In this document: in pieces, positions 6,941 through 29,026 of the stretch | Layout: the number at the start of each line of letters is the position of its first letter | How positions within the stretch are numbered: position 1 is the stretch's first letter | Source of the DNA: Cyclobacterium xiamenense | GTDB lineage: Bacteria > Bacteroidota > Bacteroidia > Cytophagales > Cyclobacteriaceae | Reading direction: 5' to 3' | Assembly: GCF_009467825.1 (NCBI RefSeq) | Contig: NZ_WIOK01000009.1 | Coordinates: 62,001-126,000, forward strand | Length of the DNA stretch: 64,000 nucleotides | The notes under the pieces: model-generated | Told to the model about the DNA's origin: nothing | The model's input: only the letters and a program-made list of their open reading frames with translations | Database searches by the model: none | Made by a program: the position numbers and the translations under genes

Positions 6941-8332
6941 CTAGTCAAAAAACTGGGTCTCCAGCTGTCCGGTCGCTTGAACGTGAATCACCAAATCGGT
7001 CCGGGTAGGATAAATACCCGTGATACCGATTTTAGGATCTTCCAACAGTACCTGTGCTACGGGACTTTGCCATTCCCCAAATTGGGCCAGTAGCGTTTCT
7101 GCCTCGTTCAGGTAATCCTGTATGGGAAAAATGGCCCGCTTTTCCAGGTTTTTCCGAATTTTTCTGCGCTTGGACCAGTTGACGGTATTGGTTAGGAAAT
7201 TTTTGGTTTTCACTTTGAATTCAATATCGGTGAAGAAAATCTGTTGCTTTAGCTCGTCAAAAACGGGTTTGCCTGCCAGGTAAAACTGACCGGCTAAATC
7301 CTTCTTCCCTTCCCGTAATCCGATAAAATCCATGGAAACCAACAGCCGCTCCCCGAGGTGACTTACGGAAATCGTTCCCGGTCGCATGCGGGTCTTGCTG
7401 TTCAGGACGATAAGACTGTCCGCCAGGGTTTCGTTCAGCTGGCTGGCGATTTCCTCGAAACTCAGGCTTATGGGGATGGTGATTTTCAGGTTATTGCCGG
7501 TGACCTCCTCCAGTGTCAATGCTGGAAGCGGTGCCAGTTCGGTTGCCAGGGGCCGGTCTCTTTGGCTGACCATTTCGGCTGTAAGGCCGATACCGAGCTG
7601 GAGTTCCTGATCCGGGGTGAGTTTTTGGTGAATCCGCAAGCTTTCTGGCTGGGGATACACGTAATTTCCGGAAATGCCATTGGGAATGTACCGGGGTTTC
7701 CCGAAGCTGTCCCAAAAGTTTTCGGCCAGCCTTCGAAAATCCAGCGCCGCAAGGGCTCCGTCGCGCAACTGATTTTCCATGATGGTCACCACCTGCCGTT
7801 TGACCAGGGGTTCAAAATCAAACTGAAGTCCCAACACATCGAATGAAAGCGGTTTTCCTAGCGAACGTATTTCCAGATCCTGGATATCAAAACTCCAGTC
7901 CTTATTCAAAACGGGAAGAAAATCAATCTCGGGAGACAAAGCCTGTTCGAAAGGCAGCGCGGTGGACACGCGTTGTCCAAAGATGCGCTTTTCGAGTCGC
8001 AGGGTTCCGTCGGCTATCACGGGCATGCCCAATTGGAGCTTGCCTTGATCGGAGGCAGCCAGGGACAGGTTACCGGTTTTCTCCAGGTGGATGTCAGCGA
8101 CCAGGCCATCCCCTAATTCAAGCCCCTTTTCGTCTATCAGCTGTTGGCTTAATTGCCGATTGATCCGCTTAGCGATAGACGATAGCGGGATGTTTAGCTG
8201 AAGGTTTATTGCGGCGCCGGCGGCTGGAACCTCGGGTGGCGCTGGCGGATTGTCTACCCGAAGGCTGCGGCAGGCAGCGCCAGCCAGCAAGAGCAGTAAA
8301 AAGGGAAAGAAACGATAGCAGGGAAGGCTCAT
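6941..8332 (-). CDS. DUF4403 family lipoprotein
   Basis: The 463-residue protein starts MSLPCYRFFPFLLLLLAGAA with a cysteine at 21, a lipoprotein signal, so it is likely anchored to the outer or inner membrane. The rest is a beta-rich DUF4403 protein made of two similar halves, each with an I.ipls.i...IN..L pattern (around 25-40 and 290-310); function is not known. The frame is open up to 8398, but the start at 8332 is chosen because it places the signal peptide at the N-terminus and because a promoter element lies at 8396-8403, inside the longer version. It is convergent with the exonuclease gene, with only one base between the stops. Confidence 0.82.
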   Translation of the reverse strand: MSLPCYRFFPFLLLLLAGAACRSLRVDNPPAPPEVPAAGAAINLQLNIPLSSIAKRINRQLSQQLIDEKGLELGDGLVADIHLEKTGNLSLAASDQGKLQLGMPVIADGTLRLEKRIFGQRVSTALPFEQALSPEIDFLPVLNKDWSFDIQDLEIRSLGKPLSFDVLGLQFDFEPLVKRQVVTIMENQLRDGALAALDFRRLAENFWDSFGKPRYIPNGISGNYVYPQPESLRIHQKLTPDQELQLGIGLTAEMVSQRDRPLATELAPLPALTLEEVTGNNLKITIPISLSFEEIASQLNETLADSLIVLNSKTRMRPGTISVSHLGERLLVSMDFIGLREGKKDLAGQFYLAGKPVFDELKQQIFFTDIEFKVKTKNFLTNTVNWSKRRKIRKNLEKRAIFPIQDYLNEAETLLAQFGEWQSPVAQVLLEDPKIGITGIYPTRTDLVIHVQATGQLETQFFD

Positions 8333-12326: not shown

Positions 12327-13100
12327 ATGAAATGCAATGGTAAGGCATTTTTATTGTTTTTGGGGTTAATGCTCTTTTATCGGTTGATATGGGCTCAGAC
12401 GGAACGCCCGATTTTGGTCGCTGCTGCTTCGGATCTAAAATTTGCCCTGGATTCAATTATCTTGGTTTTTAACCATGAAAAGCAAATCACCGTTAAGCCC
12501 ATTTATGGTTCCTCCGGAAAATTATACGAACAGCTTTCCAATCGGGCACCTTTTCATATTTTCATGTCGGCAGATGTGCGCTACCCGGAATTATTAGCCG
12601 AAAAGGGCCTGACGGCATCTGAAATTTATGCATACGGAGTAGGCAGGTTGGTGCTATGGAGTAGAAAGTATGATGTAAAGGAACTTGGGATGGAGGCTTT
12701 TCAGCAGCCCTGGGTAAAGAAGGTAGCGATCGCCAATCCCGATCACGCTCCCTATGGAAAACGGGCGGTGGAGTCGCTGGCCTTTTATGGCTGGAATGAA
12801 AAGCTGGCCCCCTCATTGGTAAAAGGAGAAAACATTTCTCAGGCCGCTCAATTTGTCGCTACGGGAGCGGCAGATTTGGGAATGATTGCGTTATCTTTGG
12901 CCCTTTCACCCACCATGAAAAAGTATCAGAGGTCTTACTTTCTTATCCCGGAATCAAGTCATTCCCCCCTGGTCCAGGGCGCGGTCGTTACCAGGCATGG
13001 GGAAAATAGTCCGGAATCGTATGCCTTTATGGCGTTTTTGAAAGGGGAAAAGGCACTCGGTATTCTCCGCTATTTTGGTTTTTCCCAACCTTCAAACTGA
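12327..13100 (+). CDS. modA: Molybdate ABC transporter substrate-binding protein
   Basis: The 257-residue periplasmic protein binds molybdate or tungstate and delivers it to the ModBC importer. It has a signal peptide ending around WAQ (residue 24), then the family opening ILVAAASDLKFAL and the ligand-contact segment YGSSGKLYEQL. The late segment FVATGAADLGMIALSLALS is the second conserved ligand region. The stop overlaps the modB start by one base (TGATG), so translation is coupled. The operator at 12279-12302 places the operon under molybdate-type control. A sulfate-binding role is unlikely because the neighbours are all molybdate type. Confidence 0.92.
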   Translation: MKCNGKAFLLFLGLMLFYRLIWAQTERPILVAAASDLKFALDSIILVFNHEKQITVKPIYGSSGKLYEQLSNRAPFHIFMSADVRYPELLAEKGLTASEIYAYGVGRLVLWSRKYDVKELGMEAFQQPWVKKVAIANPDHAPYGKRAVESLAFYGWNEKLAPSLVKGENISQAAQFVATGAADLGMIALSLALSPTMKKYQRSYFLIPESSHSPLVQGAVVTRHGENSPESYAFMAFLKGEKALGILRYFGFSQPSN

Positions 13101-13774
13101 TGGATTTTAGCCCCTTCTTTTTGACCCTGAGGCTGGCGCTGTTTACCACGCTAATTCTTTTTCTGATAGGTATCCCATTGGCTTATTGGCTGGCATTTAG
13201 CAAGTTCCGGATTAAGTATATGGTAGAAGCAATTGTCAGTTTGCCCCTGGTATTGCCTCCCACGGTTTTGGGATTTTACTTGTTGTTGTTTTTTAGTCCG
13301 GAGAATCCGATAGGGGGCTTCCTGGATCGTTATTTTGACCTGCGTCTGGTATTTACCTTTCCGGGGCTGGTGCTGGCTTCGGTTATTTACAGTTTGCCAT
13401 TTATGGTTCAGCCCTTGCGTTCCGGTTTTACCGGGATCCCAAAGGCCTGGATAGATACCACCCAAACCCTGGGAAAAGGGCGGTGGGTTACGTTGACACG
13501 GGTGATGCTGCCCAATATGAAAAGTGCACTGCTTACAGCGGGTGTCTTGTCTTTTGCCCATACCGTGGGAGAGTTTGGAGTGGTATTGATGGTAGGAGGC
13601 AATATTCCCGATGAAACACGAGTGATTGCAGTCGCCATCTATAACGAGGTGGAAGCCATGAATTATGGGCAGGCCAATACCTATAGTCTGATTCTCATTG
13701 GATTTTCCTTTCTGGTCTTGCTCATTACCTATTGGCTGAATCGCGATAAAAGCAGGGTTTTGAGCTATGATTGA
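13100..13774 (+). CDS. modB: Molybdate ABC transporter permease
   Basis: The 224-residue inner-membrane protein has about five to six hydrophobic segments and belongs to the binding-protein-dependent transport permease family. The cytoplasmic EAA-type loop that contacts the ATPase is visible as TTQTLGKGRWVTLTRVMLPN. VLPPTVLGFYLLLF near residue 50-65 is characteristic of ModB. The start overlaps the modA stop and the end overlaps modC by eight bases, so the three genes are one translationally coupled operon. Length is normal for ModB. Confidence 0.93.
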   Translation: MDFSPFFLTLRLALFTTLILFLIGIPLAYWLAFSKFRIKYMVEAIVSLPLVLPPTVLGFYLLLFFSPENPIGGFLDRYFDLRLVFTFPGLVLASVIYSLPFMVQPLRSGFTGIPKAWIDTTQTLGKGRWVTLTRVMLPNMKSALLTAGVLSFAHTVGEFGVVLMVGGNIPDETRVIAVAIYNEVEAMNYGQANTYSLILIGFSFLVLLITYWLNRDKSRVLSYD

Positions 13775-18253: not shown

Positions 18254-19123
18254 GTGCGTGCCTTGGCCTACCGAAATTTTATGCCTGGAGATATGTTCTA
18301 CCGATTGTTTGGATTTTTCTTGAATGGCCTCGCCCGTTTGGCTCCGAAGCAGGCGGGAAAGCTGGCCTTCTACCTGTTTTGCAGGCCGAAACGCCGGGGA
18401 ATTAACGGCGAAGAGCGGGCGTTTCTCAAGGCCGGGAGTTTCAAAAAAATGGATGTAAATGGGCAGGTTATTCACCTGTATGGATGGGGAAGCGGCCCCA
18501 AAAAGGTACTTTTTTTACACGGTTGGCAAAGCAATTCTGCTCGTTGGCAACCGTATGTCGACGCACTGGAGGGGTCAGGCTTCCGTGTACTGGCCTACGA
18601 TGCACCCGGACACGGTTTGAGTGGAGGCAATCGGTTTACCATTCCCGAAAATGCTGAGCTGATCCAGCGAATCACGAACGCAGTGGGTGGAGTTGATGCC
18701 GTGGTGGGCCATTCGCTAGGTGGCTATTCTTACCTATATGCGCGATCCATACATGCACTTCCAGCGGTAAAGCGGCTGGTAATCCTGGCTTCCCCGGTGA
18801 CGATTGGGGCGTTGGTTGAGGTTTTTAGCAAGGCCCTTGGCCTGTATCCGAAAACGGTGGCTTGCATGATGGAGGAAATGGAAGTCAGGACGCCCGGAGG
18901 CCTGCAGCTTTTCGGGTTAAGCAAGCTGGCGGGTACGCTATGCCTGCCGGGACTAATCATTCACGACCAACAAGATGAACGAATCCCTTTTTGTCATGCG
19001 GAACAGCTCGCCGCCGTCTACCCCGAGGCAAAACTAATCGCCACCCGTGGTCTGGGTCACCGATTGCGTTCCGATGAAGTGGTTCAACTGGTTGTCGGAT
19101 TTGTTAATGGGAGGTGTGAGTGA
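18254..19123 (+). CDS. Alpha/beta hydrolase
   Basis: The protein has the alpha/beta-hydrolase fold: oxyanion region LFLHGWQSNSARW, nucleophile elbow VVGHSLGGYS with the catalytic serine, acid in HDQQDERIPF and histidine in TRGLGHRL. The frame is 289 residues from a GTG at 18254; ATGs at 18281 or 18293 are also possible and would remove 9 or 13 residues. No signal peptide is evident, so it is probably cytoplasmic. Its substrate cannot be told. It is tightly coupled to the MFS gene, so both may act on the same class of small molecule, which is an inference. Confidence 0.8.
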   Translation: MRALAYRNFMPGDMFYRLFGFFLNGLARLAPKQAGKLAFYLFCRPKRRGINGEERAFLKAGSFKKMDVNGQVIHLYGWGSGPKKVLFLHGWQSNSARWQPYVDALEGSGFRVLAYDAPGHGLSGGNRFTIPENAELIQRITNAVGGVDAVVGHSLGGYSYLYARSIHALPAVKRLVILASPVTIGALVEVFSKALGLYPKTVACMMEEMEVRTPGGLQLFGLSKLAGTLCLPGLIIHDQQDERIPFCHAEQLAAVYPEAKLIATRGLGHRLRSDEVVQLVVGFVNGRCE

Positions 19124-19149
19124 GACATCTAGAATCGAAATTCCTTTTT

Positions 19150-19170
19150 ATCCAAGATGGCACCTTGGAT
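19150..19170. repeat. 21-bp inverted repeat before the surface-protein unit
   Basis: Arms ATCCAAG and CTTGGAT are separated by ATGGCAC. It lies 13 bp before a TAGCTTTG -7 element and covers the expected -33 zone, so it could be an operator. It lies only 26 bp after the hydrolase stop, so a weak terminator is the alternative; the T run starts eight bases beyond the repeat, which is far for that role. Confidence 0.45.
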
Positions 19171-19183
19171 TGAAGAAATTTTT

Positions 19184-19191
19184 TAGCTTTG
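19184..19191 (+). promoter_or_regulatory. -7 promoter element for the beta-helix / type IX-secreted pair
   Basis: TAGCTTTG matches TAnnTTTG exactly. The TTGG at 19165-19168 is a candidate -33 box with somewhat short spacing. It implies a leader of about 170 bases before the start at 19365. Confidence 0.42.
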
Positions 19192-19364
19192 TTTAAATAC
19201 AAAAATTTGTCTTTTGAAATCTAAAATGATACTTTTATTATTAGTTAACAGAATAGCTTTGGTTGAAACAACTAGCTTTCTTGTCAATCAACCTAGAATC
19301 GGAGCGTAGTAAAAACCAGGGAGTTCTGAAATTTTGGTCAATGATCACCTTAACAAATTTTACT

Positions 19365-20366
19365 ATGAAATACTTTTGGCATTTGATAGCGCTCTTTCTA
19401 GTTTTTGGGACTAGCCACTTACCTTGTAGTGCAGGGATTTGGCGCATTAATAATCAATTGGAAACGGATAAGTCGCAACGTGTTTTTTCGCAACTGGCAC
19501 CTTTAAATGATGATGCGGATGTTTTGCCCGGTGATACCATTCACCTGGAAGGCTCACCCGTGAGGTACAGTAACTTTACCTGTACCAAGAGGTTGGTCAT
19601 CATCGGGCCCGGATATTTTCTCACCGAAAATCCGGAAACCCAGGCCCGGGCAGAAGAAGCCGTTATTTCCACCATTAGATTTAATACCGGTTCCGAAGGT
19701 TCTATGGTAATGGGTGTGGTGTTTGACTATACCAGTAGCAGCGGGATTTTTGTTGCTACCAACAATATCACTATTCAGCGTTGCTACATGAGGGGTGGTG
19801 TAACCATCACTGATCAGACCGGTATTCGGATATTTCAGAATTATATGCTTGGAGACGTTGGTGGCTATACTTCAAGTACCGTTTTCAGTGATGTAGTGGT
19901 CCGCAACAATCTCTTTATTGGAGGTTCGTTTAATACGCGAAGGGGAAGTTTTTCGATTTGTGAGAATAATGTTTTTACAGGCAATAACATCACCATTAGT
20001 GCTGCCTCCTTCCGTAACAATATTATTACAAATGTAAATGCGGCTGTCACTATCACCTCCGGAAACCTGCAAAATAACCTGGCGGCAAATGGACAATTTG
20101 GAACTGAAAATGGTAACCGGAATGTGGACATAAGCAATGTCTTTGTGGAAGAAGGAAGTTCGGATGGTCAGTACCAATTGGCTCAAAATTCCCCAGCCAA
20201 GGGCGCAGGATATGAGGGGGTAGATGCCGGTGCTTTCGGTGGCGAGGGTGGCTACAGGCTTTCCGGTTTGGCACCGATTCCCCTGATTTACGATTTAAGA
20301 GTGGATGATGCGGGAAATGTAGAAAGTGGTGTGGGCATTCAAATTAAGGTGAAATCCAACCAGTAG
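19365..20366 (+). CDS. Secreted right-handed beta-helix-like protein
   Basis: The 333-residue protein starts with a signal peptide (MKYFWHLIALFLVF, cleavage near residue 22). The open frame extends upstream only through a TTG, so the ATG at 19365 is used. The body repeats short strands with Asn-rich turns (NNITIQRCYMRGGVTI, VVRNNLFIGG, NNVFTGNNITI), which is the pattern of parallel beta-helix proteins. The ending LSGLAPIPLIYDLRVDDAG then IQIKVKSNQ is a common tail in Bacteroidota surface beta-helix proteins. No catalytic residues of a lyase were recognised. The large type IX-secreted protein starts four bases after its stop, so the two are one operon and probably act together at the cell surface. 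Confidence 0.72.
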   Translation: MKYFWHLIALFLVFGTSHLPCSAGIWRINNQLETDKSQRVFSQLAPLNDDADVLPGDTIHLEGSPVRYSNFTCTKRLVIIGPGYFLTENPETQARAEEAVISTIRFNTGSEGSMVMGVVFDYTSSSGIFVATNNITIQRCYMRGGVTITDQTGIRIFQNYMLGDVGGYTSSTVFSDVVVRNNLFIGGSFNTRRGSFSICENNVFTGNNITISAASFRNNIITNVNAAVTITSGNLQNNLAANGQFGTENGNRNVDISNVFVEEGSSDGQYQLAQNSPAKGAGYEGVDAGAFGGEGGYRLSGLAPIPLIYDLRVDDAGNVESGVGIQIKVKSNQ

Positions 20367-20370
20367 CACC

Positions 20371-23300
20371 ATGTTGAAACGGTACCTGGTATTTATTTTT
20401 TGTTTTTTGGTCGTCTATATATCCAAGGCACAAGAAATCCAACGTTTGGAGTACTTTTTCAATACGGATCCGGGTTTTGGAGCGGGCAGCCCCTTTACTT
20501 TTTCGGAAGGTGAAAAAGTAGAATCCGATTTTACGGTTCCCTTGACAGGCTTGGAAACGGGGATGCATGAAGTATTTGTCCGTGCGATGGATACAGAGGG
20601 AAACTGGTCGCACACCGCTTCTCAGATTTTTTTTGTCGATCCTATTCCGGCTAGCGATGTGAATCTACAATACCTGGAGTATTTTGTAGACACCGACCCC
20701 GGTTTTGGAAAAGGTGTCCGTGTGAGTTTACAGGAAAACCAATCCATTTCACTGGACATTACGGCAGTTCTTTCAGACAAAGACCTGTCTTTTGGTTTTC
20801 ACGAACTTTATTTTAGAGCACTGGATAATAATGGAAGGTGGTCGCATACCACCAAACGGATTTTCTACCTTCAACCGGGTACGCCAAGCTTGAGTAAAAT
20901 TACCCGGTTGGAGTACTACCTGAGTGATGGAGAATATATCTCTCCTCTTCAAACCCATGTGATTCCCGAACCTTCCACTTCCGTGGAATTGGATTTTCAG
21001 GCAGACCTTTCCTTTCTTCCCGATGAAAACAAGCAATACCAACTGTCCATTTACGCCGTCAATGAGTATGGGGTGCGAAGCCTGGTAGAAACGAGACCCC
21101 TAAGTGTATGTAATGGAGAACCGGCCAAGGCAGGATTTGACTTTGCTATTAATGAAGGGAGAGTAGATTTGACCAATACCTCCACATCGGCCGACACCTT
21201 TCAATGGATTATCGGTGAAGAAATTGTGGATCAAAAAGGTTACTTTTTTGAGTACGACGCTCCGGGTTGGTATCCGGTCTCATTGGTAGCAGGCAATATC
21301 TGTAATCAGGACACCTTGAACCAGGTGGTAGAAGTACCGGGAATACAGAATATTTATCCCAATTCAGGAAGCATTCAACAAACGGAAGCCAACCTGACCA
21401 TTGCGGGCTTTGGCTTGGACTCCCTGCCGCAGGTTATTTTAAAGGCGACTGAAGGCGATGTCTATGGGCCGGTTAGCCTGATACGAGCAGATTCTATCCG
21501 CCTTCGGGTGCAGTATGATTTTTCACAAATGCCGATAGGCTCTTACACCCTACAAGTCATAAATGAAGAAGGGGCCGATACCCTCAGCTTGGAAAAGCCC
21601 TTCACCTTGTTGGAAGGCGGGACCATGCCTTATGACCAATGGGTAGAATTTGAGCTGGCACCGGACAGTACCTTCCACGAATCTGTCCTGATTCCTGAAT
21701 CCGATAAGATGCTGGTCACCATGAAAAAGGCTGATCGTATCGGATATTCGGGAACATGGAGAGGGGAAATGTCTCTGTTTCTGGGTGAGGAACTCGTTGG
21801 GAAAACGGAAGGTACTTCCGATTTTGACCTGGAAGTAGAAAAGCCCTTATCCACGCTTTACAACGTAGAAATTCCCAATAATACCTCCCGGCCGATTACT
21901 GGCAAGGTAAAGGTATCTTTTGCACCAGATTGGCTTCCACCAAACGAATGGACCACAGGAGAGATTCTCAGGCCCTATGGATATGACTGGAAGTATGTGG
22001 ATATAGGCTCCAATGTGGACACCTTGTTTTTTGAAACGGAGGGCTATGGATTATGGAGCACCATAGAGGTGTTTCAGGAAAGCATTACAGAACCCATTGA
22101 ATCCTGGACCTTTAGCAATATGGGTGCAGGGTATGCTATAAAAGGGCATATTTTATCCCCGGAATCCGGCAGGTACTATATCCGTTACAAGGATTCCGCC
22201 GTGTTGCAAAGGACTGAAAATGGAAATCAGGTAAGGGATTACTTGATTTATGCGGGAGTTAGCAGTGCCAACGGTATTGATGTAGAAAATCGCTCCATTG
22301 AAGCGTTATCTCAATACGAAATGGGCCAGGGGAAAAATACCGTTGAATTGACCGGCCGTGGTTTCAGCGAACAGGATTCCATCATTTTGATGAATCGGGA
22401 AGATTCTACCTATTATGGCATGCATGCGGTCTTCCAATCAGGTAACAAACTGGTAGCCCATCAGGATTTTGGTCTCTTGCCGGCTGGGGAATATTTGCTG
22501 GGCATTTACGGCGGTCCGATCCAATTTCATGAGCAACCGCTATTTATACAGCAGGAGGTAAAACAGGAAGTTAAAGTGGAACTGATTGCCAGAGATCAGT
22601 TTAGAATCGGGCGTTATCAAAAATTCGTAGTGCGACTCACCAATCTCGGAAATGTGGATAAAAACTTTCTTTCCCTGTTTGTTTCCGGAATTCCGCCAGC
22701 AGCAAAAATCCGTTTTGATTCGGAAATCAGTACGATTGACGATAGCATTTATCCACTGGACTCGCTATCCCAATATGAGATTGTAGATGAGGAAATGGTC
22801 GTTCCCCTGTTTGTGAATAATTTACCTGCCGGAGAATCCCTGGATATAGAAATGAGCATTTACTTGTCCGAAATGCAGGATTTCGAGTTGCAGGTAGCCG
22901 TGGATGAGCTGTTTGAAGAAAAGCTGGATGCCTTGGGAAATGACGCGCTTGGTGAATATATCCGCTTGGTTTATGAACTGGATTCACTTTTTGAGGTGGT
23001 GCGGGACTTGCAAAGTCTAAGTGCTTCAAGCAGAAGAAACGATCTAATTGCTGACGAGCTTTTGGAGAAAACCAAAAAAAGTTATGAGCGGATTTTCGAA
23101 AAGATAAATAAGATTTCCGAGTTACCAATATCAAATGAGTGTTCCAGAGAGTTAGGTAAGGCATTCGGTGCAATAATCGGGGTGGCTGCAAACCAAACTA
23201 TTGAAGAAGCTATTTATAATTACCTTTTTGGGGATTGGGATGATTGTATCTCCAAAACGGTGAGTACATTAAAGAACGATATTTGGGATCCGATTTCCAA

Positions 23301-25134
23301 GAACAGAGGAACAGGAATTTGGAACACCACTAAAAAAGTTTTTTTTCTAGCAGATTTAGCAATCAATATTGCTGATGCAACCGTAAGTTGTGGAATTGCA
23401 GTTATATCAACCGACCCTAGAGGAAAAGCTTTTGTATCGAAAGTAAAAAAATTATCAAAAGTTCTTCCAAAAACATTTTATCGTATGACTGTTCTACGTA
23501 AAAAATTAGATAACCAATTAAAAGGAGATTTAATAACGCTTTCTTTGGCCAATAGTGCTATTGAGACATTGAATATGGCAGATGTCTATTTTTTCCCATC
23601 TTTTGACGAAATTCTTGAAGCAGGTGTAGGAATTGGTCTTGGATGTAAGCAAGATGTATTAAGGGCAAAAAAATATATCCTGGGAATCTCCTCCGTCACT
23701 CCGGAAGACAAATATGGGCCTACCGGGTTTGACCAGGAAACGGATGGTGATCTGGCCAATAGAAAACGGTTCATTCCCCAAGGACAGCTTTTTGAATACA
23801 AGATCGATTATTGGAACAAAGAAGATGCGACCGCACCGGCAGCGGAAGTATTTATCCGGGATACCCTGGACATTAATTTTGATATCGGTACCGTTAACTT
23901 TACCGAGATTGGTTTTCTGGGCTGGAAAGTGCCGCTTGAAGGCGGACAGTATTTTAATGTAACCGTTGATATGCGGCCGGAAAAGGAATTGCTGGTGAAT
24001 GTAGAGGGAACCGTAAATCCCGAATCCCGGGAGATTTACTGGGTGCACCGTTCCCTGGACCCGGAAACCATGGAACTTCCGGAGGACCCCACGGCCGGGT
24101 ACCTTCCTCCCATTGATTCTACGGGATACAATATTGGCTGGGTGATGTTTACCGTAGAAGGACTAGACAGCCTTGGCCACAACAGCACCTTTCAAAACCA
24201 GGCACATGTCAATTTTGATGGGGTAGGTCCCTGGGGACCCGCTCCTCCGTATGGCCCGTATACCAATACCATTGACCAGCTGGCTCCGGATAGTCATGTG
24301 ATGTCCTTGCCGGAACGGTCGGGAAGGGAATTTAATGTCAAGTGGGTTGGAACGGACGAGGGAGGAGGAATCGGTAGCTACGATATCTTTGTACGAGAAG
24401 ACGATGGTGATTTTGAGCCCTGGTTGCAAGCTACCTCTCTGCAAGACGCTGACTTTACCGGAGAAATGGGTCGTCAATACGCCTTTTTTAGTGTAGCCAC
24501 TGACCATACCGGTAATCAGGAAGTGAAGACCGATACGATTGAGGCTGTTACTTACGTTCCGGAATTGCCGGAGATTGCTCGCTTGGTTTCACCTCTGGAG
24601 TACGTGGTATCCGCCGATAAATTTTCCTGGACAGCTGCCGAAGAAGCGGATGCCTACACCCTTCAGGTTGCTGCCGACTCCCTATTTGAAGATTTGCTTC
24701 ACGAGGAAGTAGTGGCCGATACTACCTGGACTACCGGACAAATGGAAGAGGGAAAGCTGTATTTCTGGAGAGTGATGGCATCAAATGTTTCCGGAGATGG
24801 AGAATGGTCTGAAGTCGGGACGTTCGAAGTGGATATTGTAACCGGTCTGGAATCGATTGGAAACTACCCGGAAACCTATTCTTTTGGTAAAGTGTATCCC
24901 AACCCAACGGATGGAGCACTTTTCTTTGAATTTTCTGTACCGGAACAAATAGATGTACGCATTGAACTATATAGTGCCACCGGGCAAGCCAGGAGATTGG
25001 TCCTGGATCGGAAACTGGATCAGGGAAGCTATCAGGTGCAAATGGATGTTCAGACAGAACCTTCCGGCCTGTATATTATTCAGATGCGTGCCGGGAATTT
25101 TAATGAGTCACATCGGTTTATCATTAACAAATAA
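20371..25134 (+). CDS. Large secreted multidomain protein with type IX sorting domain
   Basis: The 1587-residue protein has a signal peptide (about 1-21, ending SKAQ). Residues about 24-245 hold three related units of about 75 residues; the first two contain LEYFFNTDPGFGAG and LEYFVDTDPGFGKG and the third is diverged. A PKD-like domain follows (about 249-325), then an IPT-like domain (about 326-410), further beta domains, a helical low-GC module (about 890-1110), a DUF11-like segment ending in HVNFDGVGPWGPAPPYG, fibronectin-like domains (about 1300-1500) and a C-terminal type IX sorting domain (VYPNPTDGALFFEFSVPE to the end). It should be exported and attached to the surface. No catalytic domain was recognised; adhesion or a structural role with the beta-helix partner is an inference. 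Confidence 0.85.
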   Translation: MLKRYLVFIFCFLVVYISKAQEIQRLEYFFNTDPGFGAGSPFTFSEGEKVESDFTVPLTGLETGMHEVFVRAMDTEGNWSHTASQIFFVDPIPASDVNLQYLEYFVDTDPGFGKGVRVSLQENQSISLDITAVLSDKDLSFGFHELYFRALDNNGRWSHTTKRIFYLQPGTPSLSKITRLEYYLSDGEYISPLQTHVIPEPSTSVELDFQADLSFLPDENKQYQLSIYAVNEYGVRSLVETRPLSVCNGEPAKAGFDFAINEGRVDLTNTSTSADTFQWIIGEEIVDQKGYFFEYDAPGWYPVSLVAGNICNQDTLNQVVEVPGIQNIYPNSGSIQQTEANLTIAGFGLDSLPQVILKATEGDVYGPVSLIRADSIRLRVQYDFSQMPIGSYTLQVINEEGADTLSLEKPFTLLEGGTMPYDQWVEFELAPDSTFHESVLIPESDKMLVTMKKADRIGYSGTWRGEMSLFLGEELVGKTEGTSDFDLEVEKPLSTLYNVEIPNNTSRPITGKVKVSFAPDWLPPNEWTTGEILRPYGYDWKYVDIGSNVDTLFFETEGYGLWSTIEVFQESITEPIESWTFSNMGAGYAIKGHILSPESGRYYIRYKDSAVLQRTENGNQVRDYLIYAGVSSANGIDVENRSIEALSQYEMGQGKNTVELTGRGFSEQDSIILMNREDSTYYGMHAVFQSGNKLVAHQDFGLLPAGEYLLGIYGGPIQFHEQPLFIQQEVKQEVKVELIARDQFRIGRYQKFVVRLTNLGNVDKNFLSLFVSGIPPAAKIRFDSEISTIDDSIYPLDSLSQYEIVDEEMVVPLFVNNLPAGESLDIEMSIYLSEMQDFELQVAVDELFEEKLDALGNDALGEYIRLVYELDSLFEVVRDLQSLSASSRRNDLIADELLEKTKKSYERIFEKINKISELPISNECSRELGKAFGAIIGVAANQTIEEAIYNYLFGDWDDCISKTVSTLKNDIWDPISKNRGTGIWNTTKKVFFLADLAINIADATVSCGIAVISTDPRGKAFVSKVKKLSKVLPKTFYRMTVLRKKLDNQLKGDLITLSLANSAIETLNMADVYFFPSFDEILEAGVGIGLGCKQDVLRAKKYILGISSVTPEDKYGPTGFDQETDGDLANRKRFIPQGQLFEYKIDYWNKEDATAPAAEVFIRDTLDINFDIGTVNFTEIGFLGWKVPLEGGQYFNVTVDMRPEKELLVNVEGTVNPESREIYWVHRSLDPETMELPEDPTAGYLPPIDSTGYNIGWVMFTVEGLDSLGHNSTFQNQAHVNFDGVGPWGPAPPYGPYTNTIDQLAPDSHVMSLPERSGREFNVKWVGTDEGGGIGSYDIFVREDDGDFEPWLQATSLQDADFTGEMGRQYAFFSVATDHTGNQEVKTDTIEAVTYVPELPEIARLVSPLEYVVSADKFSWTAAEEADAYTLQVAADSLFEDLLHEEVVADTTWTTGQMEEGKLYFWRVMASNVSGDGEWSEVGTFEVDIVTGLESIGNYPETYSFGKVYPNPTDGALFFEFSVPEQIDVRIELYSATGQARRLVLDRKLDQGSYQVQMDVQTEPSGLYIIQMRAGNFNESHRFIINK

Positions 25135-25316
25135 TCAGTTTGTGATGGTTTTTACCCGTTAGCTTTTCTGATACAGATATCTTACACTGATTTTGGAAAG
25201 GGCTACAAATTAAATCGCTCGTTGTTTATTTGACTCAAGCAAATTGATTGAGCCTTTGATGCATTCATTTAGGTTTTAGTAACTGAGATTTTATTGAAGA
25301 AAACATTGACCTAGCA

Positions 25317-26471
25317 TTAATACCTAAAAATTCCCGCTAATCCGGTATCCGTAGGCATGGTATCCGGGGGCATCACGATCACGTTGCCGCCCATCTTTAA
25401 GACCAACTCGCTCATATCATCCAAAAGATCATCCACCCGGGGATTGTCCATGTCTTTTTTCTGGGTGTTGCCCGTTACTAAATTGGTGATGCGGGCGGCG
25501 ATGATTCTGTCCGCTTCTACAAGCAAGGTGCCGATCCTTCCCTCCACCGCAGCTACGGCCAGTTCTTTATAGTCGTCTGTTCCTTTGCCAGCTGCTTTGG
25601 CCTCCTCATATTGCCCGGCATGATTTTTTAGGTTCTCCAGGTAGGCAGGCTCCATGACTTCCCAGGCCATTTTAGCCAATTTTTCTTTTGGCACAGCCGA
25701 AGGGTTTACCTGTATTCCTTCGGGTAATAGCGCGGAGTTTTTGTTCACTTGCTGAAAAAGGTGGTGGTGTTCCGGTAGGGCAGCTAGAATAAGGGGAATT
25801 CCGAGTGGTTTAGAGAAATTTTCTTCCACTTTTTTGGATACCACCCGAAAAAACCGCTCTGCATCCAAATCTACCTGGTCTTTTTTACCGCCATGGCCAT
25901 GGTGCATGGCGGTACTTTCTCCCGCAGCTCCTCCATAGGAGGCTACGGTGTGGTGCTCATCTGTAAGTTCTTTGCCCAGGGCATCCTCCAGGGTGTTGGG
26001 TATGTCGTCGGAAAGTTGTATTTGTTGCAATGAATGCCTGTTTCCTTCGTATAAAGTGAATTCGTCCAGGCTCAAGCCCAAAAGGTGATAGCGGTCGGTG
26101 GACTGTAAATACTTCCGAAGTGGTTTGGTATGAAAACTATCGGCCACAATGGCCAGGCTTTCGACGGCTATGGGCAAGTTCACCACCTTGACAAAGTCGG
26201 GGGAACTAAATACCGCCAGGCCATCGAGACTGGTATTCCAAAAGGCATCGTCGCTGGATATTTTCTCCAGGGGAGCCAAAACAGTCCGGGTTTCATCGGC
26301 GCTGTATTTTTTGCGCAAGGACTCTTCCATTTCTTTCAACAGGTTTTTAAACCGAATCGGGTCTTGCCGGTTATCCGGATGGTTGCGGTAAGTTGGCATG
26401 TACAGCGAAAGGCAAGGTGCGCTCTCTGCTAGCAGTAAGTCGTGTATAAGTTTTTCGGATACTAATTGCAT
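25317..26471 (-). CDS. Bacterial archaeo-eukaryotic release factor family protein (baeRF)
   Basis: The 384-residue cytoplasmic protein opens with CLSLYMPTYRNHPDNRQDPI, the typical start of the baeRF family, distant relatives of eRF1/Pelota-type release factors. A central segment around AAGESTAMHHGHGGKKDQVD is followed by DAERFFRVVSKKVEE, where the family usually has its loop and RF-like domain. A role at stalled or hibernating ribosomes has been proposed from sequence analysis of the family but is not established. It stands alone, convergent with the type IX-secreted gene, with 182 bp between the stops and no strong terminator in that gap. Confidence 0.78.
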   Translation of the reverse strand: MQLVSEKLIHDLLLAESAPCLSLYMPTYRNHPDNRQDPIRFKNLLKEMEESLRKKYSADETRTVLAPLEKISSDDAFWNTSLDGLAVFSSPDFVKVVNLPIAVESLAIVADSFHTKPLRKYLQSTDRYHLLGLSLDEFTLYEGNRHSLQQIQLSDDIPNTLEDALGKELTDEHHTVASYGGAAGESTAMHHGHGGKKDQVDLDAERFFRVVSKKVEENFSKPLGIPLILAALPEHHHLFQQVNKNSALLPEGIQVNPSAVPKEKLAKMAWEVMEPAYLENLKNHAGQYEEAKAAGKGTDDYKELAVAAVEGRIGTLLVEADRIIAARITNLVTGNTQKKDMDNPRVDDLLDDMSELVLKMGGNVIVMPPDTMPTDTGLAGIFRY

Positions 26472-26641
26472 GGCAGGGAATGAATAGGGTGTAAAATTAA
26501 AATAACAGCTTAATAAAAAGCATTGGCTGAAAAAGGTGCAATCGCTATGCCAGAGTAGCGTTGGATTCCCAATTGTTTGTGAACAGGGCTTGGGGGCATT
26601 GAACGCAGAAAAATCACAGCGGAACCCAGACGATGGCTAAA

Positions 26642-29026
26642 TTAATTGGCAGGGGCTTTTGGCAAGGTAAAATGAAATTGGCTGCCCTCTCCGGGCGTAG
26701 AGGTTACCCAGATATCACCGCCATGATTGGTTACGATTTTTTTGCAAGTTGCCAGGCCCAGGCCGGTTCCGGCAAAGGTTTGCTTGTTGTGAAGTCGATT
26801 GAAGGGTTGGAATAACTGCGGGAGGTTCTCCGGGTCGATCCCAATGCCGTTGTCCTCCACGGTGAAATGGTATTTTTCGGGATCCTGCCTCACATGGATG
26901 CGAACCCGCGGTTGGGTGTCTTCGGGTATAAATTTCAAGGCATTGGATACCAGATTCAAAAATAACCGATAGATGGAGTTTTGGTGGCCGGAGAGCTGCA
27001 GGTCCTGGGAGGGAAATACCATCCTGGCTTCTTTTTCGGCAATTCTCTTTTTTAGGTCGCTTCGCACAAGATCGAGCACTTCTGTCAACGAAAAAGTGCC
27101 CATGGAGGTCAGTTCCTTTCCCGCTTTGGAGTATTCCAGAATATCCTGGATCATTTGCTGCATACGAATAGAGCCATCCATGGCATAGTGTATGTATTGA
27201 AGCCCTTTTTCGTCGAGTTTTTTTTCGTATTTTTTCTTTAGCAAGGAGGTAAACCCGGAAACCATGCGCAGGGGTTCTTGTAAGTCGTGGGCCGTAATGG
27301 ACGCAAATTGTTCGAGTTCCCGGTTACTCTTCTCCAGAAGTTCATTCAGTTCCTGGAGTTGTTGTTCGGTCTTTTTGGTTTCGGTAATGTCGATGATGAT
27401 GGCAACCAGGGCAGGCTGCCCTTCGTACCGCATTTTTTGCAGGTGTACTTCTACCGGGTAGCGTGAGCCGTCTTTTCGCTCGTGGACGGTAACAAAAATC
27501 AACTTTTCCTGCGCTTCGGAGACCAACGGTTCTATGAACGATCGAAATTCCGCTTCCCCAAATTCGGGTTTGATATCGTAGGGAGTCAGTTTTTGAAGCT
27601 CCTCCATTCGATAACCGATATTTAACAAGGCACCCCGGTTTGCGTAGGAGAAATGGAGGCTTTTTGTATCAAAAATGTAGATCTCATTTAGGCTGTTTTC
27701 CATGATATTCGCCAATTGGGATTTCAGGGAAAGGGTTTGCAACTGCTCCGTCTGATCATGTAGAATGGCCATCATGCATTTTCTGCCGTTGTACACCAGT
27801 TCGTGAAGCAATAACTCCCCCTGTATCAGTTCGCCGTTCTTTTTGCGATGAATGGAGGGGTTCAGCTTGCCTGGCTCTCCTTTTCCCAGGAAGTGCTGAA
27901 TTGACTCATAAAAAACACCGATTTCTTCTTCCCGAAGAAGGATTCCCATGCTATACCCCAGGATTTCGTGGCGTTCGTAGCCGTAACTGCGCAATGCAGC
28001 CCGATTGATCTCTAAAATCTCCAAGGTATCCACATCCAAGAGTATTTTGGGAAGAGGGCTGAAATCGAATAGCATCCGGTAATTGGCTTCCGATTCTTTG
28101 ATTTTGATCTCGGCTAATTTTCGCTCGGTAATGGTTCTGGCGAAGAATGCGGCGCCCGTTATTTTTCCATGCTGCAGAATTGGATGGGCACTTAGCTCGA
28201 TCCAAATCTCCATGCCGGATTCCAACTTTTCAGCCCGGCAATAGCTTTCGGTAAAGGATTCTCCAGCAAGTGCACGGGTAAAAAAGCTGCTAAAGGTTTG
28301 GTGCATGTCTGCCGGGATCTTTTCCGGGAAAAGGGCCGGGGAGCCGGGGTAGATCTTGGAACCAAGCAGTAGTTCCATTTTTTTAGCAAAGGCGTCATTA
28401 AAAGCAACAAGACGAAGGTTCGTATCGATGCTCCAAATGTCGTCGGTAGTGGTATTGATCAGGGCATCGCTATTCACTCGATCCAGCGCGCGCTGCTTTT
28501 CCATCTCGCGGTGGAGTCGGTAGCTTTGCTGCAAAACCCGCTGCTTTTTCCGCCCTTCCAATAAGGTGGTAACCTGGCCTGACAGTAATTTAAGGCTGCG
28601 CTTCTGCTGTTGGTCCAATACGGACGGTTCGGTACCAAGTAGGCATAAAAATCCCAACAAAAACCCATTGGGAGAGACCACCGGAAAACCTGCAAAAAAG
28701 TGGTATTCGGCATGGCCATTAAACAATTCAAGTGCTGTTTTGCGAGAATCCGAAATCACGATGGGCACATGGGCTTGTTTCCTGCCGAAGCCAGGGGGCA
28801 GTACGATCTCAGCAAGGCCATGTTGGGTAAATCCAAACGAGGATTTGGTAAAGGAAATGTCTTTTCCCAGAAAGGTGAGCATAGAGACGGGCGTTTTACC
28901 TATCCCTGCCGCCAACTCGGTAAGCGCATCGTATTCTCCCTCGGGTGGGCTGTCCAGAATATCGTACGAATGCAGTACTGCCAACCGCTCCCCTTCATCC
29001 GTGTCTGTAAAAGTGGATTTTTTCAT
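26642..29026 (-). CDS. Soluble GAF-PAS sensor histidine kinase
   Basis: The 794-residue kinase has an N-terminal GAF domain (about 25-175), three PAS domains (about 190-320, 325-440 and 445-560), a short coiled coil (QQLQELNELLEKSNRELEQF), a HisKA domain with the phospho-acceptor H580 in ITAHDLQEPLRMV, and a HATPase_c domain (about 680-794) with N (LNLVSNALKF), G1 (VEDNGIGID) and G2 (GTGLGLA) boxes. No membrane segment is present, so it senses a cytoplasmic signal. No response regulator is next to it; the lone receiver protein encoded at 45209 is 16 kb away. Signal and output are unknown. Confidence 0.9.
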   Translation of the reverse strand: MKKSTFTDTDEGERLAVLHSYDILDSPPEGEYDALTELAAGIGKTPVSMLTFLGKDISFTKSSFGFTQHGLAEIVLPPGFGRKQAHVPIVISDSRKTALELFNGHAEYHFFAGFPVVSPNGFLLGFLCLLGTEPSVLDQQQKRSLKLLSGQVTTLLEGRKKQRVLQQSYRLHREMEKQRALDRVNSDALINTTTDDIWSIDTNLRLVAFNDAFAKKMELLLGSKIYPGSPALFPEKIPADMHQTFSSFFTRALAGESFTESYCRAEKLESGMEIWIELSAHPILQHGKITGAAFFARTITERKLAEIKIKESEANYRMLFDFSPLPKILLDVDTLEILEINRAALRSYGYERHEILGYSMGILLREEEIGVFYESIQHFLGKGEPGKLNPSIHRKKNGELIQGELLLHELVYNGRKCMMAILHDQTEQLQTLSLKSQLANIMENSLNEIYIFDTKSLHFSYANRGALLNIGYRMEELQKLTPYDIKPEFGEAEFRSFIEPLVSEAQEKLIFVTVHERKDGSRYPVEVHLQKMRYEGQPALVAIIIDITETKKTEQQLQELNELLEKSNRELEQFASITAHDLQEPLRMVSGFTSLLKKKYEKKLDEKGLQYIHYAMDGSIRMQQMIQDILEYSKAGKELTSMGTFSLTEVLDLVRSDLKKRIAEKEARMVFPSQDLQLSGHQNSIYRLFLNLVSNALKFIPEDTQPRVRIHVRQDPEKYHFTVEDNGIGIDPENLPQLFQPFNRLHNKQTFAGTGLGLATCKKIVTNHGGDIWVTSTPGEGSQFHFTLPKAPAN

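What the first reader, a model, noticed from the sequence alone, without database searches (positions are those of the whole stretch)
23041..23700. AT-rich module inside the 1587-residue type IX-secreted protein
Residues about 890-1110 are encoded by DNA of roughly one-third GC, while the flanks are near 50%. The stretch is helical and Lys-rich (SKVKKLSKVLPKTFYRMTVL) between beta domains, and has cysteines, unlike the flanks. It looks like an inserted or swapped segment of foreign origin, possibly a variable or effector-like module on a conserved surface scaffold.
Basis: seen in the sequence. Interest (0 to 1): 0.55.

Follow-up and report, generated by a model that had tools for sequence, protein, structure and literature searches.

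The report
Swappable module in a surface protein
A short AT-rich stretch in the middle of a large bacterial surface-protein gene is a probably helical segment that related bacteria have exchanged or replaced while keeping most of the rest of the gene, so it is a real domain swap whose biological job is still unknown.

Summary
In the 1587-residue T9SS cargo gene (20371-25134, +) residues 877-1104 have GC 0.36 and GC3 0.28, against 0.47 and 0.48 for the rest. None of 2184 windows of 220 codons from 159 other ORFs of this genome is as low as codons 891-1110.

Orthologues show a swap. The window and Cyclobacterium roseum share the scaffold (dS 0.04-0.10) but not the module (dS 1.78; sharp left edge at residue 876). 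C. roseum and C. plantarum share the module (dS 0.18) across diverged scaffolds (0.68-2.05). C. lianum has a different AT-rich block of 488 residues there: the first ~215 are diverged beta domains, the rest shows no relation. Pleomorphovibrio and a MAG keep a 25-31% identical module at normal GC.

The module is predicted helical (low confidence), has four Cys invariant in five sequences, and is under purifying selection. No family names it. No neighbour that tracks it was seen, so "effector" is not supported. My reading: an exposed, disulfide-stabilised recognition/binding module on a surface stalk, exchanged between species by recombination in conserved flanks. The exchange is shown; mechanism and function are inferred. 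Nearest precedent: domain/allele exchange in P. gingivalis surface proteins.

The parts
20371..25134 (+). 1587-aa secreted multidomain protein with a T9SS type A sorting domain; the scaffold that carries the module
   Evidence: PF18962 at residues 1508-1585, E 1.2e-10; TIGR04183 E 5.4e-11
22999..23682 (+). The exchanged AT-rich module, residues 877-1104
   Evidence: GC/GC3; codon-level edges; dS and 4-fold-site contrast
20371..22998 (+). Left scaffold (residues 1-876): signal-peptide-like start, N-terminal repeats, beta-type domains by reading; near-identical to C. roseum
23683..25134 (+). Right scaffold (residues 1105-1587); its first 197 residues are 98-99% identical to the window in the three other Cyclobacterium orthologues
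23779..23904 (+). DUF7619-like domain (residues 1137-1178 aligned; domain probably about 1106-1302) directly after the module
   Evidence: 24.6 bits, under the cut-off of 27; the C. lianum and Pleomorphovibrio orthologues pass it (28.9 and 32.5 bits), C. roseum does not (26.4)
24622..24822 (+). fn3-like domain (residues 1418-1484)
   Evidence: 23.2 bits, under the cut-off of 25
24892..25125 (+). T9SS C-terminal sorting domain (residues 1508-1585)
23140..23142 (+). Cys924 codon, first of four module cysteines invariant in five sequences, the window's included
23245..23247 (+). Cys959 codon
23389..23391 (+). Cys1007 codon
23644..23646 (+). Cys1092 codon
19263..20366 (+). Conserved upstream partner gene (my preferred start is the ATG at 19365); looks like a secreted right-handed beta-helix by reading only; 4 bp before the scaffold gene
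   Evidence: homologue just upstream in 4 of 4 orthologous loci compared with the window and in 12 of 12 N-terminal-relative loci examined
22255..23685 (+). Stretch whose counterpart in C. lianum is a different 488-aa AT-rich block (first ~215 aa a 28%-identical version of the beta domains, the rest without detectable relation)
   Evidence: WIN-G008 blastn aligns 19424-22256 and 23686-25135 only, within the gene; block GC 0.333, GC3 0.268; the block's first part matches the window at 28%, E 4e-15; its last 273 aa do not match the window genome

Best explanation
Residues 877-1104 are an autonomous, disulfide-stabilised, mainly helical module that sits in a slot between beta domains of a T9SS-exported, probably elongated surface protein. 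Shown: the module has moved between Cyclobacterium species separately from the scaffold, and in C. lianum the slot holds a sequence with no detectable relation to it. Inferred: the swap happens by homologous recombination in the strongly conserved sequence on either side, without a mobile element. The AT bias is explained if the Cyclobacterium alleles came from a lower-GC gene pool. Inferred function: the module is an exposed recognition or binding head (adhesin-like), and swapping it changes what the cell surface binds or is recognised by. It is under purifying selection within one allele class, so the swap, not point mutation, is the main source of variety.
For: Scaffold against module: WIN-C. 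roseum 4-fold-degenerate sites identical in 557/593 of the scaffold against 15/37 of the module; C. roseum-C. plantarum 67/80 in the module against 237/467 in the scaffold (summed). dS 0.04-0.10 against 1.78, and 0.68-2.05 against 0.18. The left edge is resolved to a codon at residues 876/877. Neighbouring genes are near saturation (WIN-C. roseum 0.35-0.49 in 6 of the 8 genes compared; the exceptions are the partner gene, 0.59, and the gene at 25317, 0.74), so even the scaffold was recently shared between species. C. lianum block. dN/dS 0.15 in the C. roseum-C. plantarum module. Four Cys invariant in five sequences, C2-C3 spacing 48 in all five. T9SS sorting domain. The adjacent DUF7619 family is listed as an intramolecular-isopeptide domain (PMC12617251, passages read). 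The operon is accessory: 4 of 12 Cyclobacterium genomes have the long gene and a partner gene of over 80% identity (two more have a 33-34% partner), and it is missing between syntenic flanks in the 4 genomes examined.
Against: Only four homologues of the module besides the window's own were found, so the exchange history rests on three Cyclobacterium alleles plus two outgroups. The AU test could not separate the module topologies (p 0.70, 0.41 and 0.14), so the direction of exchange is unknown and the claim rests on the synonymous-distance contrast. The helical fold is not established: pLDDT 35. The binding function has no direct evidence. Homologous recombination is inferred from conserved flanks and from the lack of repeats at the module's two edges (only short imperfect repeats elsewhere) and of tRNA genes in the window; it was not observed.
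Confidence: 0.6

Rival explanations
1. The slot carries polymorphic effectors or toxins: the T9SS scaffold displays or delivers interchangeable activities (a helical toxin here, perhaps a cysteine hydrolase in C. lianum).
For: Sequences without detectable relation occupy one slot in an accessory operon. The C. lianum block has, by reading, a GDIxF...HxGI...F/YE pattern and a later Cys resembling permuted NlpC/P60 (C92) enzymes; a local hhalign run places it on the right C92 motif (E 0.039). Polymorphic toxins in T9SS-bearing genomes are published (TANFOR, PMC7073777, section 5 part 1 and section 9 read).
Against: The C92 match is not significant: 8 of 300 shuffles score as high, the global run misses the motif, and Pfam gives no hit in the block. 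No neighbouring gene of 100 aa or more varies with the module in the five loci compared: the same partner gene precedes all five, and the four Cyclobacterium loci share the 25317-26642 neighbourhood downstream, with 25317 only a remnant in two (smaller ORFs and the MAG locus not compared). The variable part is internal. No PADLOC or NCBIfam match; best PHROGs E 0.1; no PDB match for the C. lianum block, and those of the helical module (best E 0.0002) are designed helical proteins.
Confidence: 0.2
2. No exchange: the module is simply a fast-evolving, relaxed, AT-drifting linker of one orthologous gene.
For: Within the genus the module is AT-rich in all three alleles; linkers often drift.
Against: C. 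roseum and C. plantarum modules are 92-98% identical per bin over more diverged scaffolds, which fast evolution cannot give. dN/dS is 0.15. Four Cys and several W, D, P residues are invariant. The C. lianum block ends sharply on the right.
Confidence: 0.04
3. The whole surface-protein operon recombines between species and the module differences reflect selection by phages or predators that use the protein as a receptor; the module is the phage-exposed epitope rather than a ligand-binding domain.
For: Scaffold dS between window and C. roseum (0.04-0.10) and 4-fold identity (0.94) stand out from 6 of 8 neighbouring genes (0.35-0.49), so the locus itself was exchanged recently; surface exposure is expected from the T9SS sorting domain.
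Against: No phage data; within an allele class the module is conserved rather than hypervariable.
Confidence: 0.16

Closest known systems
Domain rearrangement and allelic exchange in Porphyromonas gingivalis surface proteins (Kgp adhesin domains etc.; PMC5266723, abstract and 12 passages read)
   Same: Modular surface proteins, some of them T9SS-exported, whose domain variants form a mosaic unrelated to strain phylogeny, attributed to horizontal exchange.
   Different: There it is among strains of one species and among adhesin-domain or catalytic-domain types; here it is across species, at one internal slot, with an AT-rich four-Cys module and, in one species, a replacement without detectable relation.
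TANFOR polymorphic toxins of Bacteroidetes (PMC7073777, section 5 part 1 and section 9 read)
   Same: Large Bacteroidetes secreted proteins with a conserved part and a variable module; a T9SS link is proposed by the authors as speculation.
   Different: Toxin is C-terminal and often followed by an immunity gene; here the module is internal, no immunity gene was seen, and the protein itself has a T9SS sorting domain.
DUF7619 / CLIPPER-type isopeptide domains (PMC12617251, two passages read)
   Same: A DUF7619-like domain follows the module directly; Lys, Asp and Asn candidates for the bond are invariant in six orthologues.
   Different: In 25 of 30 DUF7619 loci that I could read (best-scoring ones) a beta domain by my reading, not a helical module, abuts DUF7619.

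Membership tests
T9SS type A cargo | C-terminal sorting domain | tested here: met
   PF18962 E 1.2e-10, 41.9 bits against cut-off 27; TIGR04183 42.3 bits against 23
T9SS type A cargo | Sec signal peptide | not tested
   The N-terminus reads as a signal peptide followed by AQ; no predictor was run
T9SS type A cargo | T9SS machinery in the genome | not tested
Domain/allele exchange of surface proteins (P. gingivalis type) | Module history differs from that of the scaffold and neighbouring genes | tested here: met
   dS and 4-fold contrasts; the AU topology test of the module was inconclusive
Domain/allele exchange of surface proteins (P. gingivalis type) | Module is an adhesin domain | not testable with these tools
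   No adhesin family match for the module
Polymorphic toxin | Variable toxin domain at the C-terminus | tested here: not met
   The variable part is internal (residues 877-1104 of 1587); the C-terminus is a sorting domain
Polymorphic toxin | Adjacent immunity gene that varies with the module | tested here: not met
   Gene content of five loci compared (window and four orthologues; ORFs of 100 aa or more); no such gene seen
Polymorphic toxin | Recognisable toxin domain in the module | tested here: not met
   No Pfam, NCBIfam or PADLOC match to the module; PHROGs best E 0.1, a virion protein family
TANFOR class | N-terminal TANFOR domain | tested here: inconclusive
   No hit in Pfam or NCBIfam, but whether either library holds a TANFOR model was not checked
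DUF7619 (PF24595) | Score over the curated cut-off | tested here: inconclusive
   Window 24.6 and C. roseum 26.4 bits (cut-off 27); C. lianum 28.9 and Pleomorphovibrio 32.5 bits
Peptidase C92 / permuted NlpC-P60 (C. lianum block only) | Profile similarity over the domain | tested here: not met
   local hhalign probability 1.3%, 36 columns; 8 of 300 shuffles score as high; no Pfam hit in the block
Helical four-Cys module before DPNE..GP of other Bacteroidia proteins (A6) | Detectable homology to the window module | tested here: not met
   hhalign probability 0.2%; the similarity is of position and character only

The most novel reading that the evidence does not exclude
Cyclobacteriaceae have an internal 'cartridge' slot in a T9SS-exported surface protein. 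Species trade functionally different cartridges (a four-Cys helical one, a possibly enzymatic one) by recombination in conserved edges: a polymorphic-effector or recognition system in which the variable part is held mid-stalk rather than at the C-terminus.
Probability: 0.25. Interest if true: 0.75.

Novelty: new variant of a known kind. Interest (0 to 1): 0.5.

Why it matters
It gives a clean natural experiment: near-identical surface scaffolds in two species that differ almost only in one internal module. That makes the function of such modules directly testable, and it shows that T9SS surface proteins outside the oral pathogens diversify by module exchange, here across species. If the slot proves to hold effectors, it would be a new layout for polymorphic effectors.

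Tried and rejected
Led nowhere: structure prediction of the helical module (pLDDT 35) and of the C. lianum block (pLDDT 41); Foldseek of the latter gave no hit at E <= 0.001. A profile of the helical module found only the window's own copy in a sample of 395 genomes of the phylum; phages, plasmids and viral contigs gave none, and a first scan of named genomes with the single sequence gave none. The last 273 residues of the C. lianum block had no relative in 295 family genomes other than its own, nor in plasmids; 243 of them gave none in viral contigs. The 485-residue query hit 9 of 395 class genomes: one is the window's own scaffold, six match the beta domains, and two I judged chance on reading.

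Considered and rejected: nested or antisense gene (antisense ORFs of up to 154 aa overlap the edges, none looks like a gene); repeats at the module edges or tRNA genes as insertion marks; homology of the window module to the helical Cys module of other Bacteroidia; C92 membership of the C. lianum block. Promoter and terminator scans of 19000-25500 gave nothing that I use.

Full report
Observation. The gene at 20371-25134 (+) encodes 1587 residues with a T9SS type A sorting domain at 1508-1585, an fn3-like domain and a DUF7619-like domain (both under their cut-offs). GC falls to 0.32 inside 23041-23700. Codons 891-1110 have GC 0.355 and GC3 0.282, against 0.467 and 0.479 for the rest. None of 2184 overlapping windows of 220 codons in 159 other ORFs is as low on either measure, and of 27 ORFs of at least 700 codons this has the largest internal drop. 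Lys is 10.5% against 3.1%, and four of seven Cys fall inside.

Orthologues. A whole-gene search of 59 genomes (the window's included) gave some match in 32, mostly to the N-terminal repeats, fn3-like or sorting domains, and long matches in three besides the window's: G003, G005 and G008. A search with the segment in 99 genomes gave, besides the window's, G003, G005 and G064 over nearly the whole query and only a 26-residue edge in G008. A search with the 197 residues after the module in 295 family genomes gave 14 with a match, six of them close (79-100%), and added G150. So five orthologues besides the window were compared.

The swap. In 40-residue bins window and C. roseum are 90-100% identical except for 881-1120, where identity is 30-72%. 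There C. roseum is 92-98% identical to C. plantarum, although those two are 38-98% identical in the other bins. Synonymous measures agree. Identical 4-fold sites: window-C. roseum 557/593 scaffold, 15/37 module; C. roseum-C. plantarum 237/467 scaffold, 67/80 module (summed). dS: 0.04-0.10 against 1.78, and 0.68-2.05 against 0.18. At codon level window equals C. roseum almost throughout up to residue 876, and C. roseum equals C. plantarum from 877; on the right the conserved stretch resumes at 1105. In C. lianum residues 630-1117 are a different block of GC 0.333. Its first ~215 residues are a 28%-identical version of the scaffold's beta domains (E 4e-15 against the window genome); its last 273 residues match nothing in the window genome. 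The sequence just after it is 99% identical to the window.

Results that limit this. An AU test rejected the alternative topologies for both scaffold parts but could not choose among the three for the module (p 0.41, 0.70, 0.14), probably because the outgroup modules are distant. Direction of exchange is therefore unknown. The set is small.

Wider exchange. Six of eight neighbouring genes compared between window and C. roseum have 4-fold identity of 0.35-0.49; the partner gene has 0.59 and the gene at 25317 has 0.74. The scaffold at 0.94 has thus itself been shared recently. The gene at 25317 is also conserved in species without the operon, so I do not count it in the exchanged block. The two-gene operon is accessory: 4 of 12 Cyclobacterium genomes have the partner gene at over 80% identity with the long gene, and two more have a 33-34% relative of the pair. 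In the four operon-less genomes examined the flanks are syntenic and the site holds other ORFs. No repeat marks the module edges and the window has no tRNA gene.

GC and origin. Module GC is 0.357 (window), 0.378 (C. roseum), 0.378 (C. plantarum), 0.458 (Pleomorphovibrio) and 0.437 (MAG). Low GC is therefore a trait of the Cyclobacterium alleles and of the C. lianum block, not of the module as such. An AT-rich donor pool is a fair inference; no donor was found.

What the module is. Five sequences, the window's included, align with 33 invariant positions, four of them Cys; the identity to the window is 47, 49, 31 and 25%, and C2-C3 spacing is 48 in all. The model is all-helix but of very low confidence. 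dN/dS between C. roseum and C. plantarum is 0.15, so it is constrained. No Pfam, NCBIfam or PADLOC family matches it, and the best PHROGs E is 0.1. PDB profile hits (7, best E 0.0002) are designed helical proteins and reflect helix-like composition. Other Bacteroidia proteins have a helical-looking, Cys-containing stretch just before a DPNE..GP motif, but homology to the window module was not detectable (hhalign 0.2%). In 25 of 30 loci that I could read among the best DUF7619 scorers a beta domain sits there by my reading.

C. lianum block. By reading it has a GDIVF...KHVGIL...YVFELY stretch and a later GHCGSFV. This recalls permuted NlpC/P60 enzymes. A local hhalign run against 11 C92 proteins (one only a 33-residue fragment) put it on the right motif with E 0.039 and probability 1.3%, while the global run did not, and 8 of 300 shuffles scored as high. 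It is a lead only.

Mechanism. Shown: module exchange and replacement. Inferred: homologous recombination in the conserved flanks; surface exposure through T9SS; a stiff stalk, since DUF7619 is listed among isopeptide domains (PMC12617251) and K, D and N candidates are invariant here; and a recognition or binding role. An effector role is a rival without positive evidence: no gene of 100 aa or more tracks the module in the five loci compared (the MAG locus was not compared).

Known relatives. P. gingivalis surface-domain exchange (PMC5266723, abstract and passages) is the closest in kind; TANFOR toxins (PMC7073777, section 5 part 1 and section 9) are the closest polymorphic system. Eight searches for a report of this case found none (only the open library held).

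Noticed in passing
19263-20366 and 20371-25134; loci L076-L087: A two-gene pair (small secreted beta-helix-like protein by reading, then a large cargo starting with EYFxDxDPGxG repeats and a variable remainder) recurs across the order: 12 of 12 loci examined, from 10 genomes (12 of the 16 N-terminal-relative loci). Pfam finds Ig, PKD, SprB and T9SS-type domains behind the shared N-terminus in the 10 scanned.
   Followed up: partly
L037 about 12707-13138 and L038 about 7559-7726: The gene at window 25317-26471 survives only as a C-terminal remnant beside the operon in C. plantarum (residues 239-384) and C. lianum (326-384), although it is full-length in six Cyclobacterium genomes, the window included.
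   Followed up: partly
L059, L061, L064, L065, L067: Open frames of about 3600-4440 aa in several Cyclobacteriaceae genera with a collagen-like Gly-Pro stretch, a Cys/Gly-rich hydrophobic module and a DUF7619-like domain; the Cys/Gly module also differs between them.
   Followed up: no
L145-L147, L062, L068: A helical-looking module with cysteines (four in most) precedes a DPNE..GP motif in other Bacteroidia proteins (alignment A4). Its Pfam scan failed on coordinates and was not repeated; PDB sequences gave no match.
   Followed up: partly
23707-24300: The DUF7619-like domain keeps Lys, Asp and Asn candidates for an intramolecular isopeptide bond, invariant in six orthologues; the exact triad is my inference.
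   Followed up: partly
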